This document shows, piece by piece, positions 10,500-26,603 of a DNA stretch of 64,000 bases. Position 1 is the stretch's first letter. Each line of letters begins with the position of its first letter. The stretch is taken from positions 1-64,000 of IMG/VR virus record IMGVR_UViG_3300031576_000022; one strand, given 5' to 3'. Source of the stretch: a virus. The notes under the pieces were generated by a model. The model searched no databases. It saw nothing but the letters and a program-made list of their open reading frames with translations, and had not been told where the DNA came from. A program made the position numbers and the translations under genes.

Positions 10500-10567
10500 A
10501 CATCTTCTTTCTTTATGTAAAATCTTATAAATTCTTTTATTAAATTTTGATTATTAAAATTTTGTTC

Positions 10568-10964
10568 GGTGGACCTGCGGGAGAATTGAACTCCCGGTCT
10601 CATGATATTCTGCCTTAAAGCTCTCGTTCACGCTTATAGCACATTCGGTTTGGTGTTTATTTTAAATTTAGCGCCGATAGGCACCGCTAAATTGTTGCTG
10701 CTTTAACGTGCTCATCGGGTTATCGCAGCGACCCGAATCATTTTTCCGTGCTGAATTATGCATTGTTCCGATCGCACGGTTTCGGACAATACATCGCTTG
10801 CTGCGGATTAGGCAGCGACGGCCACAAAAGCGCGAGCGCTTCCGGGGCCAGCGAGCAGATTGTCGTTCTTGGCAATTATTGGTTCTCCGGGTGATTTACG
10901 AGGCCAACCGGAATCCTCGAAGCGCGAGCTTGGGCATTATATCTGATCGATCCCTTTCAGGCCC
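10568..10964 (-). ncRNA. ssrA: tmRNA (transfer-messenger RNA), one-piece
   Basis: Rescue RNA that recycles stalled ribosomes and tags the nascent chain. The 5' end GGGCCTG (complement of 10958-10964) pairs with the 3' strand CAGGTCC (complement of 10571-10577); the third pair is G.U, the alanine identity element. A T-arm (CGGGAG, loop TTCAATT, CTCCCG) precedes the 3' strand, and GGGATCGAT near the 5' end fits the tmRNA D-loop region. The tag frame is at 10808-10873. Several helices match the pseudoknot domains, including TTGTTCCGA/TCGGACAA (10763-10789) crossed by CCGTGC/GCACGG (10746-10751 with 10774-10779). ACC is encoded but the final A of CCA is not. No smpB is seen in the window. Confidence 0.93.
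10808..10873 (-). other. tmRNA tag reading frame
   Basis: Resume codon GCC at 10873; the encoded tag is 21 residues, beginning AKNDNLLAG and ending RAFVAVAA before TAA. The N-D-N start and the hydrophobic VAVAA end are typical of tags recognised by ClpXP/ClpAP. It is longer than the usual 10-15 residue tags and contains an internal Gly/Pro/Ser/Arg stretch. The stop lies in a GCTGC/GCAGC hairpin, as is usual for tmRNA. Confidence 0.9.
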
Positions 10965-20374: not shown

Positions 20375-20382
20375 ATCGGTTT
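20375..20382 (+). repeat. left target-site duplication ATCGGTTT
   Basis: ATCGGTTT immediately before the left terminal repeat; an identical copy follows the right end at 24355-24362. The exact 8-bp duplication marks a transposition event of IS1-family type (8-9 bp duplications). Confidence 0.95.
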
Positions 20383-20400
20383 GGTAGTGTCCTGATTTGA
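20383..20400 (+). repeat. left terminal inverted repeat
   Basis: GGTAGTGTCCTGATTTGA; matches the inverted right end 16 of 18. GGT at the tip is usual for IS1-family ends. Confidence 0.93.
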
Positions 20401-20423
20401 GTTTCTGTTTGGCCCGCTATTTG

Positions 20424-21536
20424 CTACTCGTCTGTTTCGGTCGGCTCCGTCTCTTCGATATTGAATTCAACGCGGCTTTGTATGATAATTTCGTCAATAA
20501 CAGTATCCATTTGGTTGAGTTTGCATATATCGTCAAAGATTTCAATTAGCTTAGGAACATTTATTATTTCTTCAATTGAAGACATAAATTTATCGACGAT
20601 TATATCGATATGATATTTTGATATCGCTTCTGTGCGAATCTTATTGCGTATCAGTTCTTCGGTATCTTCACTCTTTATAACAAATGTCAACGGGAATCGA
20701 TTCACCTTATCAATATCTAAAAAGTATTTTTCAGCACTCACGGTTTCTGTGACCTGGAAAAATCTTCCTAGTGGTCGCATAACAAAATCAATGCCACCAT
20801 CGTTCGCGTTTGTTTTTCCAGTCTTATACAATACAAGGCACTCTTGCACAAGATCATCTGATGTATAACCCCAATATATTGTTGTGTTACTATAGTGCTC
20901 TTTCAATATCGTGTAACTAACAATTTCAAATATTCTGGCATCAACGTTTGGTTTGATTTGGTCACGAATAAATTGAACAGCATGTGTACTATTTGTTTTA
21001 CTAATCATTTTTACAGATTCACATAAATCAACAAAATTATTGAATGCTTCTTGTTTAGCAACAATATATCTATTAATTATCTCGATTACTGTGTCACCGA
21101 TGTTTATGTCTTTTTTGTAGCCATTAATTTCAATGCTAATTATTAGTAGTTTCTCATTGATCCAGTATCGTAATGTATCAACATCACGTAAAATTGGCCC
21201 TTCATCACTGGCTTTGAAATATTTTATGAATTCCTCGTTACACCGGCTATTAAGTGCATGATTTTGCAATTTTGAACCGAAAGGTAATTCGCGTTGTCGG
21301 CGAAAAATATCACTGAAACGAGCGCCTTGATATGATTGGTATTGCCCCTTTCGGTCAGAAGTAAATCCATTTCTTATATAATCTTCAACAAGCACATAAA
21401 CAGCGTAATGATTCGCGAACGAACCCCTTGATTTGGCACCACTACTGGCAGATTTTGTTTTTATGTTCAAATACTGTAAAAGTGAACTTCGCTCGAAAAT
21501 AGTCTCCGCATGCTGACCGAAATGCTTGTGAAGCAC
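20424..21536 (-). CDS. probable type II restriction endonuclease
   Basis: About 370 residues from GTG 21536. Residues 245-264 give NDGGIDFVMRPLGRFFQVTE: D250 after GGI and a following Q-V-T-E strand, with E204 in a preceding helix, compatible with a PD-(D/E)XK fold (inference). N-terminal LNIKTKSASSGAKSRGSFANHYAVYVLVEDYI is the kind of block seen in type II enzymes. It lies directly downstream of the methyltransferase. Reading further upstream in frame gives HDFTPVIFEV, protein-like but without a usual start codon, so the true start may be non-canonical. By neighbour it should cut ATGCAT (inference). Confidence 0.72.
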   Translation of the reverse strand: MLHKHFGQHAETIFERSSLLQYLNIKTKSASSGAKSRGSFANHYAVYVLVEDYIRNGFTSDRKGQYQSYQGARFSDIFRRQRELPFGSKLQNHALNSRCNEEFIKYFKASDEGPILRDVDTLRYWINEKLLIISIEINGYKKDINIGDTVIEIINRYIVAKQEAFNNFVDLCESVKMISKTNSTHAVQFIRDQIKPNVDARIFEIVSYTILKEHYSNTTIYWGYTSDDLVQECLVLYKTGKTNANDGGIDFVMRPLGRFFQVTETVSAEKYFLDIDKVNRFPLTFVIKSEDTEELIRNKIRTEAISKYHIDIIVDKFMSSIEEIINVPKLIEIFDDICKLNQMDTVIDEIIIQSRVEFNIEETEPTETDE

Positions 21537-21567
21537 TTCAAAGATAACTGGAGTAAAATCGTGTGTC

Positions 21568-22506
21568 TTATGTCTTATCGGATGAATTCTCTATTGTATT
21601 GTCTGTAGATTTACCAAATAATCGTTGTAAGATATCGTCTTCCGACTCATTTGATGCTACAGAATGGTGATTTTTTCGTATATATGATTTATCAATAGGA
21701 TTTAATATTTCACCATTTAATTCCATTTGAATATCTAATCTACGAAGACCTATTTTGATGTACTCAAGCTCTTGCTCTATACCGATAAATTTGCGTCCAA
21801 GTCTTTTAGCTACAGCACCTGTTGTAAATGTACCGGCGAATGGATCGAGAATTAAGTCTCCAATATTACTACTAGCCAGTATGATTCTATCAAGAAGCGA
21901 TTCTGGTTTTTGCGACGGATGATTTTCATATTCTGGCATTCTATATCTAACACGCGGAAAATACCAGGTATTCCCTGGAACTTTTTTAGTATTATATGGA
22001 GTTGGAGTGGCTTTTCTATAATCAATTAAATTGCGAACTGCTCCAGTTCTTGCTTCTACCATAATATCTTGAGCATTGAATGTATAGTTTGTCTTGTCCA
22101 TTACTAATAAAAGGATCGGCTCGTATAATGATCCAAAATATTTTTTTGCTTGTACGCCAGAACTATCGTAATGCCACACTATTCTTGACAGAACGTCAAT
22201 ACGTTCTCGTACATAACAATCGATCAATGGCATTGCCTGCGTACTTGTCATCAGGTACATACTCGCAGTCGAAGCCATTTTTTTTATGCAAATATCAATC
22301 CAGCGGCAACACCATGAGAAATATTCCGTATCAGACTCCCATTTGTCGTCAAAATCACCGAATTTCTTTCCTATATTGTATGGAGGATCTGCAAATATTA
22401 GGTTGATAGAACCATCAATAACCGATTCGTCAAGAATTTCAAGACTATCTCCGTGTATTATTCGGCATCCATCTTTTTCATATATACTTTTCTTGAAATT
22501 ATTCAT
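21568..22506 (-). CDS. YhdJ-like N6-adenine DNA methyltransferase, ATGCAT-type
   Basis: ATG 22506 (MNNFKKSIYEKDG), overlapping the end of the upstream 109-aa gene by 8 nt. Catalytic DPPY at residues 40-43 precedes the SAM-binding DPFAGT at 221-226, the beta-class order. Segments GVQAKKYFGSLYEPIL, LIDYRKATPTPYN and VPGNTWYFPRVRY closely follow E. coli YhdJ (M.EcoKII), which methylates ATGCAT. About 312 residues; the tail after MELNGEI is variable and Asp/Ser-rich. It should protect phage and host DNA from the adjacent nuclease. Confidence 0.93.
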   Translation of the reverse strand: MNNFKKSIYEKDGCRIIHGDSLEILDESVIDGSINLIFADPPYNIGKKFGDFDDKWESDTEYFSWCCRWIDICIKKMASTASMYLMTSTQAMPLIDCYVRERIDVLSRIVWHYDSSGVQAKKYFGSLYEPILLLVMDKTNYTFNAQDIMVEARTGAVRNLIDYRKATPTPYNTKKVPGNTWYFPRVRYRMPEYENHPSQKPESLLDRIILASSNIGDLILDPFAGTFTTGAVAKRLGRKFIGIEQELEYIKIGLRRLDIQMELNGEILNPIDKSYIRKNHHSVASNESEDDILQRLFGKSTDNTIENSSDKT

Positions 22507-22828
22507 GTTTGTTGTTCTTGGCGTCCGCTGCGATTGACGCACGCACCGCATCGCGAGCGGAGTTTATGGGAGGAAACCCGAGTACGACGACTGCTTCAAG
22601 AGTGCCGTCGTCCCGTTCGCGTTCCCAAGCATAGACGCGCAAAGAAGATGGGCCAATTTCAAAAATTTCGACGACGCCGTCCCACGCAACTTTTCCCTGC
22701 CACAATTCCTTGACATGAATAGGCTTAAGTAGGTTTTTGGCGGTGCTGCCTGCGGCTCTCTCGACCGCGACGAGCAGGCTATCGATTTCATCGATCTTGT
22801 CTGGCAGGCTAGCCACTGTTAGAGTCAC
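22499..22828 (-). CDS. hypothetical protein upstream of methyltransferase
   Basis: 109 residues from GTG 22828 (TLTVASLPDKIDEI), stop overlapping the methyltransferase ATG, so first gene of the R-M operon. Contains a beta stretch GVVEIFEIGPSSLRVYAWE and VVVLGFPPINSARDAVRASI. The strand pattern faintly recalls HigB/RelE-type toxins but catalytic residues cannot be assigned. It has no HTH, so it is not an ordinary C-protein. Higher G+C than the other R-M genes. Confidence 0.6.
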   Translation of the reverse strand: MTLTVASLPDKIDEIDSLLVAVERAAGSTAKNLLKPIHVKELWQGKVAWDGVVEIFEIGPSSLRVYAWERERDDGTLEAVVVLGFPPINSARDAVRASIAADAKNNKHE

Positions 22829-23013
22829 GAATGAGGTTGATGAAGCCGATTTGCCATGGAAAATACGTGAGACGAAACACTAGCAAGCATCGGAAATCGG
22901 TACCATAAATATTTGCAATAGTTTGAGATAAAAAAGATAGCAACAATTGCGTATCGAAAAGTCGGCACAAAACCATTCCATGGATTATGGAGAAAAACAT
23001 GAGGCTAGTGAAG

Positions 23014-23116
23014 GCCCTGACGATTGCAGGTAGTGGACGGATTGTCAGGGCTGTAGAAACACGATGACCGTAGCTGATTCCCTGAGAAGGTCGGCTACGG
23101 CCATCGCCAGTCCACT
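23014..23116. ncRNA. candidate structured RNA with H-type pseudoknot
   Basis: Helix 1: GCCCTGAC (23014-23021) with GTCAGGGC (23044-23051), 8 bp perfect. Helix 2: CGATGACCGTAGC (23062-23074) with GCTACGGCCATCG (23094-23106), 12 of 13 pairs, capped by CCT-GAGA-AGG with a GNRA loop. Helix 3: AGTGGAC (23032-23038, inside loop 1) with GTCCACT (23110-23116), 7 bp perfect, forming a pseudoknot that brackets helix 2. Strand is undecided, though the adjoining tRNA-like element reads on plus. Unknown family; topology is like HDV ribozymes but lacks P3. Confidence 0.65.
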
Positions 23117-23146
23117 CTACATGCCAATGAGGTAATCGACGTAATC

Positions 23147-23218
23147 GGGGAGCCAGGTGGCCCGGCGCGGTCGTTTAGAGGCTTAGCGCGAGGGGTTCGA
23201 TTCCCCTGCTCTCCACCA
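23147..23218 (+). tRNA. tRNA-like element without anticodon arm
   Basis: Acceptor GGGGAGC pairs with GCTCTCC, the third pair being G.U as in alanine tRNAs and tmRNA; canonical T-arm AGGGG-TTCGATT-CCCCT; encoded ACCA end. Only about 37 nt lie between acceptor and T-arm; GCGC/GCGC with a loop containing TTTAGAGG resembles a D-arm, and no 5+7+5 anticodon arm can be drawn. It may be an aminoacylatable mimic like the tmRNA tRNA-like domain, or a tRNA remnant. It ends 2 bp from the stop of the RHH gene. Confidence 0.55.
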
Positions 23219-23219
23219 T

Positions 23220-23393
23220 TTACGTCAACAACCTCTGACGCACCCAATCTACCAAAACCATGCCTTTGGCACAAGCTTTGTCTTCGATTACCGCAAGCTC
23301 ATCCGGGGTGAGTCGGACTTGAAGACGTTTCGTTTTCCCTTCTCCGGTGGGGAGGCGTGGACGACCGCGTTTTGGCTTCACTTTTTTCTTCAT
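23220..23393 (-). CDS. small ribbon-helix-helix regulator, 57 aa
   Basis: ATG 23393 gives MKKKVKPKRGRPRLPTGEG, then KTKRLQVRLTPDELAVIEDKACAKG and VDWVRQRLLT. A basic N-terminal arm followed by a beta strand (RLQVRLT) and two helices is the classic RHH/CopG-type DNA-binding fold. It is divergent from the transposase gene; three TGTCGTC repeats lie between the two starts, suggesting it controls transposition (inference). The strongest overlapping alternative frames have no family features. Confidence 0.75.
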   Translation of the reverse strand: MKKKVKPKRGRPRLPTGEGKTKRLQVRLTPDELAVIEDKACAKGMVLVDWVRQRLLT

Positions 23394-23419
23394 CCTCGAA
23401 TTTTATGGCCTGAATTTTG

Positions 23420-23476
23420 TGTCGTCCATAAATGGCAGCGGATTTTTTGTCGTCTGAAAATTCTTTTTTGTCGTCC
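23420..23476. repeat. three TGTCGTC iterons between RHH gene and transposase
   Basis: TGTCGTC at 23420, 23448 and 23469, the latter two preceded by a T-run. They occupy the divergent control region 23394-23520 and are candidate binding sites for the RHH protein or the transposase. Confidence 0.65.
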
Positions 23477-23520
23477 AGGAAAATCCTCGACACCTAGAAT
23501 TTCGGGAGTACAATATTTCC

Positions 23521-24345
23521 ATGGCCAACGTACTCCGGTTCGACGTTCAGGTTGCGGTGGTTACCGCGCTCATCGAAGGGAACAGTACCCGTTCCGTCGA
23601 GCGGATGACCCGTGTTCATCGTGACACGATCACGCGCCTGGGCGTGCGGGTCGGTGAGGCGTGCGCCGCGATGATGGATCGCGAGATGCGCGATCTCGAA
23701 TGCGAACGGATTCAGGTAGACGAAATTTGGGGATTCGTCGCGAAGAAGCAGAAGCACGTTCTTCCCACTGATGATATTTCGCTTGTTGGCGATCAGTGGA
23801 CCTGGGTTGCGATTGACGCCGATACGAAAATTGTTCCATCACATCTTGTCGGAAAACGCGATGGTGCTCATGCTCGTGCCTTTATTTGCGACCTTGCCTC
23901 GCGCCTGAAAAACCGCGTTCAAATTTCATCGGATGCGCTGGCGAGCTACGTTGAAGCAATCGAGGTTGGATTTGGTGGTGACGTCGATTACGGCCAACTA
24001 GTCAAAGTCTACGCAGCTACTACCGAAGGCCCGGCGCGCTATTCCCCACCAAAAATCATGCAGGCGACCAAAAACGTAATCGTCGGGCATCCGAGACACG
24101 AGCACATTTGTACCTCATACGTCGAGCGGCAGAATCTTACGATGCGAATGGCGATGCGTCGGTTGACTCGCCTTACGAATGCCTTCTCAAAGAAGGTCGA
24201 AAACCTTCGTGCAGCGGTCGCGCTTCATTTTGCGTACTACAACTATTGTCGTCGCCATCTCACGTTGAAGACGGCACCAGCTATCGCGGCCGGGCTGACC
24301 GATCGTCGGTGGACGGTTTCCGATCTTCTCGATCTTTCAAATTAG
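23521..24345 (+). CDS. IS1-family DDE transposase
   Basis: 274 residues. N-terminal HTH (VTALIEGNSTRSVERMTRVHRDTITRL), then the DDE core: VDEIWGFVAKKQKH with the first Asp, GDQWTWVAIDADTK, ISSDALASYVEAIE with the second Asp, and HICTSYVERQNLTMRM with the Glu. The C-terminus (LHFAYYNYCRRHLTLKTAPAIAAGL) is typical of the long IS1-type transposases found in many environmental bacteria. The frame is intact, so the element could still be active. GC-rich compared with the phage. Confidence 0.93.
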   Translation: MANVLRFDVQVAVVTALIEGNSTRSVERMTRVHRDTITRLGVRVGEACAAMMDREMRDLECERIQVDEIWGFVAKKQKHVLPTDDISLVGDQWTWVAIDADTKIVPSHLVGKRDGAHARAFICDLASRLKNRVQISSDALASYVEAIEVGFGGDVDYGQLVKVYAATTEGPARYSPPKIMQATKNVIVGHPRHEHICTSYVERQNLTMRMAMRRLTRLTNAFSKKVENLRAAVALHFAYYNYCRRHLTLKTAPAIAAGLTDRRWTVSDLLDLSN

Positions 24346-24354
24346 GACACCACC
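24337..24354 (-). repeat. right terminal inverted repeat
   Basis: Complement of GGTGGTGTCCTAATTTGA, 9 bp after the transposase stop; pairs with the left end. Confidence 0.93.
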
Positions 24355-24362
24355 ATCGGTTT
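24355..24362 (+). repeat. right target-site duplication ATCGGTTT
   Basis: Exact copy of 20375-20382. Confidence 0.95.
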
Positions 24363-24448
24363 GGTTTCGTCATTTGCTGTGATAGATTGTGGTGAGCGGC
24401 AATCCTCATCATCGTCGTAATGCTGTTCAGGGTGGAGAGGCTAGGACC

Positions 24449-24463
24449 TTTCCCCTACCGGGC
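24449..24463 (+). repeat. dispersed 15-bp motif, copy 8
   Basis: TTTCCCCTACCGGGC preceded by GGACC, 22 bp before the protease/scaffold start. Confidence 0.88.
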
Positions 24464-24485
24464 CTTCTAAGGTTTACGGACGACG

Positions 24486-26603
24486 ATGATCGCTTTGTTT
24501 ACTCTTTTACGTAGATCGCAGCATGCTGCTGCTGCCGCTGATGATAGCGCGCAGGTTGTTTTGTTTGATCTATACATTGCGCTGCCAACTGAGACACAGG
24601 CTCGTCATGTAACCATGACTGAGAGCCCGTTGGAGGCATCCAGGCTAGTCGGAGAGCTTGGGCAGCCTGTGAGCAAGGATAAGCTCACCATGGCCAGTAA
24701 ACAGCCTGAGATCGTACAGGCTGGCGCTGTGGGAGCGCGCGAACAAGGTCAATCTGTTTCTAGTGACAATACGAATACTCGTATCGAAATGATCGATACT
24801 GGTGAAGTCGAGATTGTTTCTGATGAAAATGATTCAAAAATCTTCAATTTTTCTGGAAAGAAATTAATTGGAAGAATGATGATGACTCGTGATCCAGGGA
24901 CGAGTCGTTTTAATATGACAATTGATAGTAATGGTGGTGATAATAGTATCATTAGTGATAATGGTAATGGTAATGGTAATAATAATAATATTATAGATGA
25001 TAAAAAACCAAAAGAAGATACAAAAAAAGATCCTGAACCTCTTTCTGTTGATGATTTTATTAGTCCTGAATTTGCTGAAGTTATTAATGAATTGATTAAT
25101 CAAAATATACATATATCTGATGACGTAAAAGAACGTCTTACAGCTATTAGCCATCGTCTTTCTGATAAAAAACTTACAAATCGTGATGTTATTTTTGTTC
25201 TTAAATTTATTTCTGGCGGTGAAACCGCTGCATTGAATTCTATTGAATCTACTACAGATACAATTTCTCTTTCTTTATGGGATACATCTGATAAAAAGAA
25301 TGAAATTATATATCTTGACCAAGAAACAGGCGATCAATACAGGCTTGTTCCTTCTGAAAAAAATGATGGAACTTTTACTATTCCTCGTTTTCAGTTTATT
25401 TCAGAAGGTATGTATAATGATGAATTGTTTGATAGTAAAAAGGTTGCTAAAATTATTTCTAATTTTGCTGAATTGTCAAAAACTAAGATTCTTGATGTAC
25501 CAGCAAAGATTGGACATCATAGGTCGCAGTCTTTACTTGGAAATACTGGTGAACTTGCCCATGGATGGGTTAACAATGTTTGGGGTGAAGAAACGGCAAA
25601 TGGAACAAAAGGTTTTCTTTCTCTTGAAGGTATTCCGCAAACCCTTGCATATTTGATTTCTAAAAAAGCATTGAAAAATCGTAGCGCTGAAATCTTTAAA
25701 AATGTCAATTACAATGGAAAGGATTATGGTCCTACCCTTAAGGCGATTTCGTTTCTTGGCGCGTCTACTCCTGCTGTTTTAGGAATGCAACCGGATGCGT
25801 CTGGCGCTGTTGTATTGAATTCGGCCGTGCAAATGTATACGCAGGAAGACGGATCAAAAGTAATCATCGTAAAACCTAACGGGGGTAAGACTGTGAGCGA
25901 TGCCAAGAAGACGATTGAAATTTCCGTTGATGATCTCAACAAACGTATTTCTGATGCAGTTCAGGATGCTATGGAGAGGGCTAAGAAGATTGCTGAAGTT
26001 GATTCTAAGAAGATGAGTGATCAAGTTGTTGAACTTTCTGCAAAACTTAAAAACGAGCAAGATTCTCGTCGTAAGGATTTAGTTAAGTCAAATAAAGCAA
26101 CAAATGAGTCTGAGTTTGATTCTCTTGTAAAGAATGGAAGTATTCTTCCTGTACAGAAGGATGATTTTATTTCTCTTTGCAAGATTATTGATGGTGTGAA
26201 TGATATGGCTATGGGTCGTGATCTTAGCGATATGCTTTCTACTGTCAAATGTGATAAAGATACTCTTGAGTTTTCTGTTGAAACAATGGAAGCTGACAAG
26301 AAGGTTGAGATTAAGGTTCCACTCAAGAATCTTTTTTTTCGGTTTGTTAAGGGGATCAAGCAGATTGATCTTTCTCGTCAGACGAATGATGGGAAAACCT
26401 CTACTAAAAATCCTGTCGATAAGAAGGTGCTTACAAAGAGCGATGAAATTGATGAACTTACCCGTAAGTTGATGAAGGATAGCAACCTTCAATATGCTGA
26501 AGCTTTTATCAAGGCATATGATCTCAAGTTTGTTGGTGATGCAGGAATTGATGCTGCAATTGATGGTGCTACCTCTGTTCCCTCTACTAGCGATTCGGAG
26601 TAA
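24486..26603 (+). CDS. Mu gpI-type head protease/scaffold
   Basis: 705 residues. About residues 325-450 match the Mu I-type protease region: PAKIGHHRSQSLLGNTGELAHGWV, GTKGFLSLEGIPQ, LKNRSAEIFKN, GPTLKAISFLGASTPAV. The C-terminal part is a charged helical scaffold (DLNKRISDAVQDAMERAKKIAE), and the last 110 residues hold another helical domain. The first 100 residues are GC-rich, Ala/Ser-rich and low in structure, unlike the rest, and probably diverge fast. It shapes and matures the prohead. Confidence 0.85.
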   Translation: MIALFTLLRRSQHAAAAADDSAQVVLFDLYIALPTETQARHVTMTESPLEASRLVGELGQPVSKDKLTMASKQPEIVQAGAVGAREQGQSVSSDNTNTRIEMIDTGEVEIVSDENDSKIFNFSGKKLIGRMMMTRDPGTSRFNMTIDSNGGDNSIISDNGNGNGNNNNIIDDKKPKEDTKKDPEPLSVDDFISPEFAEVINELINQNIHISDDVKERLTAISHRLSDKKLTNRDVIFVLKFISGGETAALNSIESTTDTISLSLWDTSDKKNEIIYLDQETGDQYRLVPSEKNDGTFTIPRFQFISEGMYNDELFDSKKVAKIISNFAELSKTKILDVPAKIGHHRSQSLLGNTGELAHGWVNNVWGEETANGTKGFLSLEGIPQTLAYLISKKALKNRSAEIFKNVNYNGKDYGPTLKAISFLGASTPAVLGMQPDASGAVVLNSAVQMYTQEDGSKVIIVKPNGGKTVSDAKKTIEISVDDLNKRISDAVQDAMERAKKIAEVDSKKMSDQVVELSAKLKNEQDSRRKDLVKSNKATNESEFDSLVKNGSILPVQKDDFISLCKIIDGVNDMAMGRDLSDMLSTVKCDKDTLEFSVETMEADKKVEIKVPLKNLFFRFVKGIKQIDLSRQTNDGKTSTKNPVDKKVLTKSDEIDELTRKLMKDSNLQYAEAFIKAYDLKFVGDAGIDAAIDGATSVPSTSDSE

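What the first reader, a model, noticed from the sequence alone, without database searches (positions are those of the whole stretch)
23014..23116. Pseudoknotted RNA candidate inside the transposon
Three perfect or near-perfect helices (8, 12/13 and 7 bp) with crossing topology and a GAGA tetraloop occur within 103 nt without any ORF. The arrangement is like an HDV-type ribozyme without P3, or a new element. It may regulate the transposase or R-M genes, or be the 5' domain of the adjacent tRNA-like structure.
Basis: partly seen in the sequence, partly recalled or inferred. Interest (0 to 1): 0.7.

Follow-up and report, generated by a model that had tools for sequence, protein, structure and literature searches.

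The report
Pseudoknot RNA beside transposon suppressor-like tRNA
A jumping gene in a phage genome carries a knotted RNA directly in front of an odd transfer RNA that looks built to read a stop signal, and the same knot-plus-tRNA pair recurs in related jumping genes across bacteria and phages with different letters but the same shape.

Summary
In detail: window 23013-23116 forms three helices with crossing (H-type) topology, far better than shuffles (0 of 500). The HDV-ribozyme reading is not supported. The pseudoknot (PK) lies inside a complete 3,972-bp IS1-like transposon (20383-24354; matching ends, 8-bp target duplication) that also carries a restriction-modification pair and the transposase. 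Thirty nt after the PK stands a D-armless tRNA-like gene (23147-23218) with G3:U70, A73, CCA and anticodon UUA, complementary to the stop codon UAA. In 17 distinct relatives ARAGORN by default finds a tRNA 60-750 nt upstream of the transposase (duplicates removed by me). The stretch before such tRNAs often shows the same architecture (P1 hairpin, A-rich linker, long P3 hairpin, P2 from the P1 loop to just after P3) with different sequences. Matched P2 strands pair better than strands swapped between loci (25 units, 0 of 50,000 permutations); 14 of the 25 lack a convincing P2. So the PK belongs to a recurrent PK-tRNA unit of transposons without an Rfam family. Suppressor activity and the PK's role are inferred; no element gene was found to need readthrough.

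The parts
20383..24354 (.). complete IS1-like transposon, 3,972 bp, that contains the pseudoknot
   Evidence: end GGTAGTGTCCTGATTTGAG at 20383-20401 (+) and GGTGGTGTCCTAATTTGAA at 24336-24354 (-), flanked by the same 8 bp
20375..20382 (.). left target-site duplication ATCGGTTT
   Evidence: repeated at 24355-24362
24355..24362 (.). right target-site duplication ATCGGTTT
20424..21536 (-). type II restriction enzyme (cargo)
   Evidence: PADLOC REase_II 2.1e-150
21568..22551 (-). adenine-specific DNA methyltransferase (cargo); the true start may be an ATG that overlaps the end of the 109-aa ORF
   Evidence: Pfam N6_N4_Mtase 1.1e-51, NCBIfam NF008572 5.1e-133
22499..22828 (-). 109-aa protein of unknown function, a family member of these transposons
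   Evidence: relatives by tblastn in 21 of 169 transposase loci, the window included; no Pfam family for it
23013..23052 (+). P1 hairpin, 23013-23025 with 23040-23052; its loop holds the P2 5' strand 23032-23038
23053..23067 (+). A-rich linker GTAGAAACACGATGA between P1 and P3
   Evidence: linkers 57% A against 30% in whole units; AAATAG or TAGAAA in 7 of 19 linkers, this one included
23068..23100 (+). P3 hairpin with GAGA tetraloop (outer extension 23062-23106)
23110..23116 (+). P2 3' strand, pairs with 23032-23038
   Evidence: P2 -14.3; 1 of 48 cross-paired strands as good
23147..23218 (+). D-armless tRNA-like gene: 7-bp acceptor with G3:U70, 5-bp T arm, TTCGATT loop, ACCA end, anticodon loop GTTTAGA (UUA)
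   Evidence: Rfam tmRNA model matches its two ends only, 20.4 bits (below the 47-bit gathering score), E 1.1e-5; ARAGORN at a lowered threshold names it tRNA-Stop(tta); similar genes in relatives
23220..23393 (-). 57-aa NikA-like (ribbon-helix-helix type) protein, convergent with the tRNA-like gene
23521..24345 (+). IS1-type DDE transposase, 274 aa
   Evidence: Pfam DDE_Tnp_IS1 1.6e-7

Best explanation
The pseudoknot is the 5' half of a PK-tRNA unit that IS1-like transposons carry near the transposase. The unit is probably transcribed as one precursor. The host's tRNA-processing enzymes would release an aberrant tRNA, which in this copy AlaRS should charge through G3:U70 and which would read the stop codon UAA. 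The pseudoknot, with an A-rich strand that may lie along P1 and a P3 hairpin whose tip often bears UUGGCG or UUGCGA, probably protects, insulates or times the release of that tRNA. Shown: the structure beyond chance, the transposon with its target duplication, recurrence of architecture and order with compensatory change, the anticodon and identity nucleotides. Inferred: transcription, processing, charging, suppression and the PK's role.
For: (1) PK in the window beyond chance: 0 of 500 shuffles. (2) In 28 stretches before such tRNAs, P1 and P3 were chosen without regard to P2; 25 had both. Own P2 strands pair at mean -9.19 against -6.43 for strands swapped between loci, 0 of 50,000 permutations as good; 11 of 25 reach -11 (1.42 expected). 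Between those 11 units both sides of a P2 pair differ in 214 of 322 comparisons, one side alone in 6. (3) Shared details: linker A content and UAGAAA/AAAUAG; hexaloop TTG[GC][CG][GA] in 9 of 26 P3 loops, shuffled mean 0.60, maximum 5. (4) ARAGORN by default finds 21 tRNAs 60-750 nt upstream of the transposase on its strand, 17 after I removed four repeats of the same locus; UUA in 7 of the 21, 4 of the 17. Rfam calls the gene a tRNA at 51-65 bits in six of nine scanned loci. (5) 40 of 169 loci have matching ends and an exact 8- or 9-bp duplication; at least nine of these 40 hold such a tRNA or tRNA-like gene. (6) G3:U70 in 12 of the 26 units.
Against: P2 is weak or absent in 14 of 25 units; L010 and L012 show only terminator-like hairpins before the tRNA. 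The same helix criteria are met by 98 of 2,500 random windows of these loci, and by 98 of 486 given P1 and P3, against 11 of 28 and 11 of 23. A wider scan that did not require a tRNA gave p 0.095, and a first automatic P1/P3 choice gave p 0.52 because P3 swallowed P2. No self-readthrough: no stop inside the transposase of 16 stop-anticodon carriers, three of them copies of one virus; they end in TGA 10, TAA 4, TAG 2. L218, a carrier found later, is broken by TAA near its end. Anticodons are not all stops: UAU, GCU, ACU, UGC, UUC and others occur. The tRNA-like's own fold is not better than shuffles (z -0.87). No expression data.
Confidence: 0.57

Rival explanations
1. The tRNA-like RNA is not used for decoding. 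With the PK it is a regulatory or decoy RNA (for AlaRS, SmpB, EF-Tu or a stalled ribosome), and the stop anticodon merely keeps it out of normal translation.
For: D-armless, tmRNA-like ends (also L209); no gene in the element was found to need readthrough; the review PMC7609411 (passages read) tells that some irregular allo-tRNAs could not be charged or used in E. [quoted passage not shown]
Against: Several units carry cloverleaf tRNAs with Rfam scores of 51-65 bits and sense anticodons; a mere decoy would not need a whole anticodon arm.
Confidence: 0.25
2. The stretch before the tRNA is only a set of strong hairpins (terminators and insulators of upstream genes). The crossing P2 is a by-product of GC-rich stems.
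For: L010 and L012 have terminator-like hairpins there; random windows meet the criteria at 98 of 2,500.
Against: P2 own-against-swapped test 0 of 50,000; A-rich linker and hexaloop motif; no run of T follows P3 in the window.
Confidence: 0.12
3. A self-cleaving, HDV-type ribozyme.
For: Order P1, P2, P1', hairpin, P2' as in HDV without its P3; the first pair of P1 is G:U (sequence).
Against: No P3 equivalent, P1 4-13 bp across 11 units, no Rfam ribozyme at E up to 5 in the window or 0.05 in nine relatives.
Confidence: 0.03
4. The PK is a 5' regulatory element of the transposase mRNA; the tRNA between them is incidental.
For: Usually on the same strand, a few hundred nt upstream of the transposase; L003 and L024 seem to have hairpin pairs directly before the transposase (by eye).
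Against: In L018, L023 and L054 the tRNA lies on the other strand, so the unit cannot lead the transposase mRNA there.
Confidence: 0.12

Closest known systems
allo-tRNAs (Mukai et al. 2017, known here through the review PMC7609411, passages read)
   Same: aberrant bacterial tRNAs, some with G3:U70 for alanine and with a UAA-reading or UAU anticodon; one pseudogene overlapped a transposon-related ORF; a link with transposable elements was guessed
   Different: the window copy has a 7/5 acceptor branch and no D stem rather than 8/4 or 9/3; a preceding pseudoknot and defined transposon ends do not appear in the passages read. L054 and L182 may be true allo-tRNAs (not tested).
tmRNA tRNA-like domain (RF00023)
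   Same: no D stem, G3:U70, TTCGATT T loop, ACCA end, pseudoknots nearby
   Different: no mRNA-like part or tag; the pseudoknot lies outside, 5' of the acceptor; a 7-nt anticodon-type loop closes the stem
HDV-like ribozymes
   Same: crossing P1/P2 with a hairpin between P1' and P2'
   Different: no P3, no fixed 7-bp P1, no sequence core found by Rfam
IS1 family insertion sequences
   Same: DDE transposase with IS1 match, ends GGTAGTG..., 8-bp (some 9-bp) duplication
   Different: elements of about 1.3-6.3 kb with cargo and tRNA genes; one-ORF transposase (that IS1 itself uses a frameshift is recalled)
transposon-borne structured RNAs such as omegaRNA/HEARO and bridge RNA (recalled)
   Same: a structured RNA next to the transposase gene
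   Different: DDE transposase, no guide-RNA nuclease or IS110 recombinase seen here; the RNA is joined to a tRNA

Membership tests
PK-tRNA unit of IS1-like transposons (defined here) | crossing P2 between the P1 loop and the tail of P3 | tested here: met
   window P2 -14.3, 1 of 48 swapped strands as good
PK-tRNA unit of IS1-like transposons (defined here) | tRNA or tRNA-like gene directly downstream | tested here: met
   23147-23218
PK-tRNA unit of IS1-like transposons (defined here) | A-rich linker between P1 and P3 | tested here: met
   47% A, TAGAAA present
HDV-like ribozyme | helix P3 nested between P2 5' and P1 3' strands | tested here: not met
   one nucleotide lies between them in the window
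HDV-like ribozyme | self-cleavage | not testable with these tools
   needs a transcript
tmRNA | mRNA-like tag reading frame between the halves of the tRNA-like domain | tested here: not met
   the Rfam match has only 34 nt unaligned between its two ends, 20.4 bits against 47; the phage has a separate full tmRNA
allo-tRNA | 12-bp acceptor branch in 8/4 or 9/3 form | tested here: not met
   7 + 5 pairs in the window
allo-tRNA | insertion of an amino acid at the codon read by its anticodon | not testable with these tools
   needs a reporter assay
IS1 family | IS1-type DDE transposase, IS1-like ends and 8-9-bp duplication | tested here: met
   Pfam DDE_Tnp_IS1 above its cut-off, ends and duplication; but NCBIfam transpos_IS1 53.6 bits stays under its cut-off of 100

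The most novel reading that the evidence does not exclude
A new RNA class: transposons spread a pseudoknot-governed cassette that releases aberrant tRNAs (nonsense and missense suppressors), reprogramming the translation of host or phage for the benefit of the element, and this is the source of many orphan suppressor-like and allo-tRNAs seen in bacteria and phages.
Probability: 0.3. Interest if true: 0.88.

Novelty: new variant of a known kind. Interest (0 to 1): 0.72.

Why it matters
Aberrant and stop-reading tRNAs turn up in bacteria and phages without a known home. Here they sit in transposons with defined ends, near the transposase, often behind a pseudoknot whose shape is kept while its sequence changes. 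This gives orphan tRNAs a vehicle and names a testable RNA partner. It also makes a direct question possible: whether a mobile element rewrites a stop codon, and for whose benefit.

Tried and rejected
HDV ribozyme: see membership test. tmRNA remnant: the phage's own tmRNA (10567-10964, -) has a different acceptor; the tRNA-like has no tag. Self-readthrough: in-frame stops in element genes were sought two ways. An all-ORF comparison gave 1,417 rows, mostly antisense artefacts, and was dropped. A transposase-only check found internal stops in L015, L041 and L110 and in second fragments of L103 and L104, and in L217, L223 and L232; none of these is a stop-anticodon carrier. L218, which is one, is broken near its end. 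Grammar scan for the PK over whole loci gave 1,695 hits, mostly in GC-rich coding DNA: not specific. P2 tests in the order done: p 0.52 (17 units, faulty P3 choice), p 0.0047 (15 units), p 0.095 (55 loci, no tRNA required), 0 of 50,000 (25 units). DNA similarity of the PK in plasmids: none; in phages only short weak matches. No close relative of this phage was found. The 109-aa protein: AlphaFold2 model of mean pLDDT 77; best PDB matches weak (Foldseek E 0.054, VIA-align Z 5.6): inconclusive. No R-scape run; the MFE alone does not show the knot. Rows dropped before counts: of the 26 units L193 and L194 were left out as doubtful tRNAs, and L018, L021, L023 and L054, found otherwise, were added (28 in all); L010, L021 and L218 had no P1 and left the P2 test. 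Of the 21 ARAGORN rows, L159, L160 and L162 repeat L158, and L237 is the same place as L069.

Full report
1. Check. The stretch 23013-23116 was read and its helices found by script. P1 is GGCCCTGACGATT with GATTGTCAGGGCT, P2 AGTGGAC with GTCCACT, P3 CCGTAGCTGAT with GTCGGCTACGG. P2 joins the P1 loop to the stretch just after P3, so it crosses P1. The best such triple scores -62.1 against -35.4 +/- 3.4 for shuffles, 0 of 500 as good. The ordinary fold without pseudoknots (z -2.29 for 221 nt) keeps P1 and P3 but pairs the end of P2 locally.

2. Where it lies. The window is part of an 86,248-base virus record with Mu-type portal, terminase and head protease genes and a GC of mostly 30-40% around the site, against about 45-55% between 22500 and 24750. 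The IS1-like transposase at 23521-24345 is followed by GGACACCACC. Searching for that end found the other one at 20383, after the portal gene, and the same eight bases ATCGGTTT on both outer sides. So the transposon is 20383-24354. Such ends with exact 8- or 9-bp duplications exist in 40 of the 169 loci held at that point, the window included. The cargo includes a type II restriction enzyme and methyltransferase and a 109-aa protein whose relatives occur in 21 of the 169 loci, the window included.

3. The neighbour. At 23147-23218 is a tRNA-like gene: 7-bp acceptor with G3:U70, 5-bp T arm with TTCGATT, A73, CCA, no D stem, and a stem closed by GUUUAGA, that is, anticodon UUA, complementary to UAA. 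Rfam's tmRNA model fits only its ends (20.4 bits, below the gathering score of 47, E 1.1e-5). ARAGORN misses it by default and names it tRNA-Stop(tta) at a lowered threshold. Reading G3:U70 as the alanine identity element rests on established knowledge, repeated in the review PMC7609411 (passages).

4. Relatives. A descriptor script found a tRNA or tRNA-like gene within 700 nt upstream of the transposase in 26 of 222 distinct loci (two of them doubtful). Its anticodon reads UUA in eight, the window included; in three more (L020, L210, L218) I read UUA by eye because the script's register was off. G3:U70 is present in 12 of the 26. ARAGORN with default settings, an independent method, finds 21 tRNAs in the 60-750 nt upstream on the same strand, 17 without four repeats of the same locus: UUA in 7 of 21 (4 of 17), UAU in three, GCU in two, ACU in two and others. 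It finds 28 tRNAs elsewhere in the loci, two with UUA. Further stop anticodons: L054 UUA, L018 and L023 CUA, L011 CUA in a gene cut by the contig end (by eye); default ARAGORN gives L021 UUA. Two elements hold two tRNAs in a row, L035 and L069.

5. Is the pseudoknot conserved? For 28 stretches of up to 150 nt before such tRNAs a script chose the best P3 and P1 without looking at P2. In the 25 with both, the P1 loop was then paired with the 20 nt after P3, and also with the tails of all other units. Own pairs average -9.19, swapped pairs -6.43; 0 of 50,000 permutations did as well; 11 of 25 reach -11 where 1.42 are expected. The 11 are the window, L023, L054, L123, L158, L182, L203, L209, L220, L222 and L230. 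Their helices share little sequence: for P2, both sides of a pair differ in 214 of 322 comparisons and one side alone in 6. The units share an A-rich linker after P1 (57% A against 30%), with AAATAG or TAGAAA in 7 of 19 linkers (shuffled mean 0.77, maximum 5), and a P3 tip TTG[GC][CG][GA] in 9 of 26 (shuffled mean 0.60; control P3 loops 28 of 606). The window has the linker motif but a GAGA tip. Results against: 14 of 25 have no convincing P2; the helix criteria are met by 98 of 2,500 random windows against 11 of 28; a scan without the tRNA condition gave p 0.095; an earlier faulty choice gave p 0.52 and a 15-unit version p 0.0047.

6. What it does. The stretch tested always precedes the tRNA, but the tRNA itself may lie on either strand relative to the transposase (L018, L023 and L054 are reversed). 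So the unit is more likely a gene of its own than a leader of the transposase. The simplest reading is a precursor from which an aberrant tRNA is cut, the PK serving protection, insulation or timing. The anticodon and G3:U70 make alanine insertion at UAA the first hypothesis for this copy. Against a service to the element's own transposase: no stop lies inside the transposases of the 16 stop-anticodon carriers examined, three of them copies, and their own terminators tell little (TGA 10, TAA 4, TAG 2). The beneficiary is unknown.

7. Known things. Rfam has no family for the PK (at E up to 5 for the window; at E up to 0.05 for nine relatives). The library of open papers was searched with terms for suppressor tRNA, transposase or transposon, allo-tRNA, P63C, IS1 family, pseudoknot, passenger genes and recoding in phages (listings only, except passages of PMC7609411); one search returned nothing. 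None of the listings described a pseudoknot-tRNA unit of transposons. Allo-tRNAs are the nearest relative; a link of some of them with transposable elements was already guessed. The original 2017 paper was not held.

8. Verdict. A structured RNA that is part of a recurrent transposon unit; the HDV-type interpretation is dropped; the function is inferred.

Noticed in passing
window 10567-10964 (-): The phage carries a complete tmRNA gene (Rfam 100.6 bits) that ARAGORN does not report; its tag, read by eye, ends in ...AVAA.
   Followed up: partly
window 20383-24354: The IS1-like transposon has brought a type II restriction-modification pair into a phage genome, between the portal and head-protease genes.
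   Followed up: yes
window 22499-22551: The end of the 109-aa ORF overlaps a possible ATG of the methyltransferase (ATGAATAA), which suggests translational coupling of transposon protein and cargo.
   Followed up: no
window 24404-24490: A hairpin with perfect 11-bp arms (ATCATCGTCGT/ACGACGATGAT, 61 nt apart) outside the transposon, right at the start of the head-protease ORF; the first 300 nt of that ORF are GC-rich.
   Followed up: no
L010 2600-3764, L012 to 3832, L013-L018: Several elements carry a gene that I take from memory for a P63C-domain protein; not checked with a library.
   Followed up: no
L003 3733-3850 and L024 3190-3270: Hairpin pairs directly before the transposase without a tRNA seen; both share CTCGCAACTTCATT, which contains the complement of the UUGCGAG type of loop.
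   Followed up: partly
L203 2571-2637 (-): The tRNA-like there scores 33.3 bits with Rfam's mascRNA model (below its cut-off), another tRNA-like fold.
   Followed up: no
L182, L147, L217: Long-variable-arm tRNAs with UAU anticodon upstream of the transposase, an anticodon that the review calls predominant among 8/4 allo-tRNAs.
   Followed up: partly
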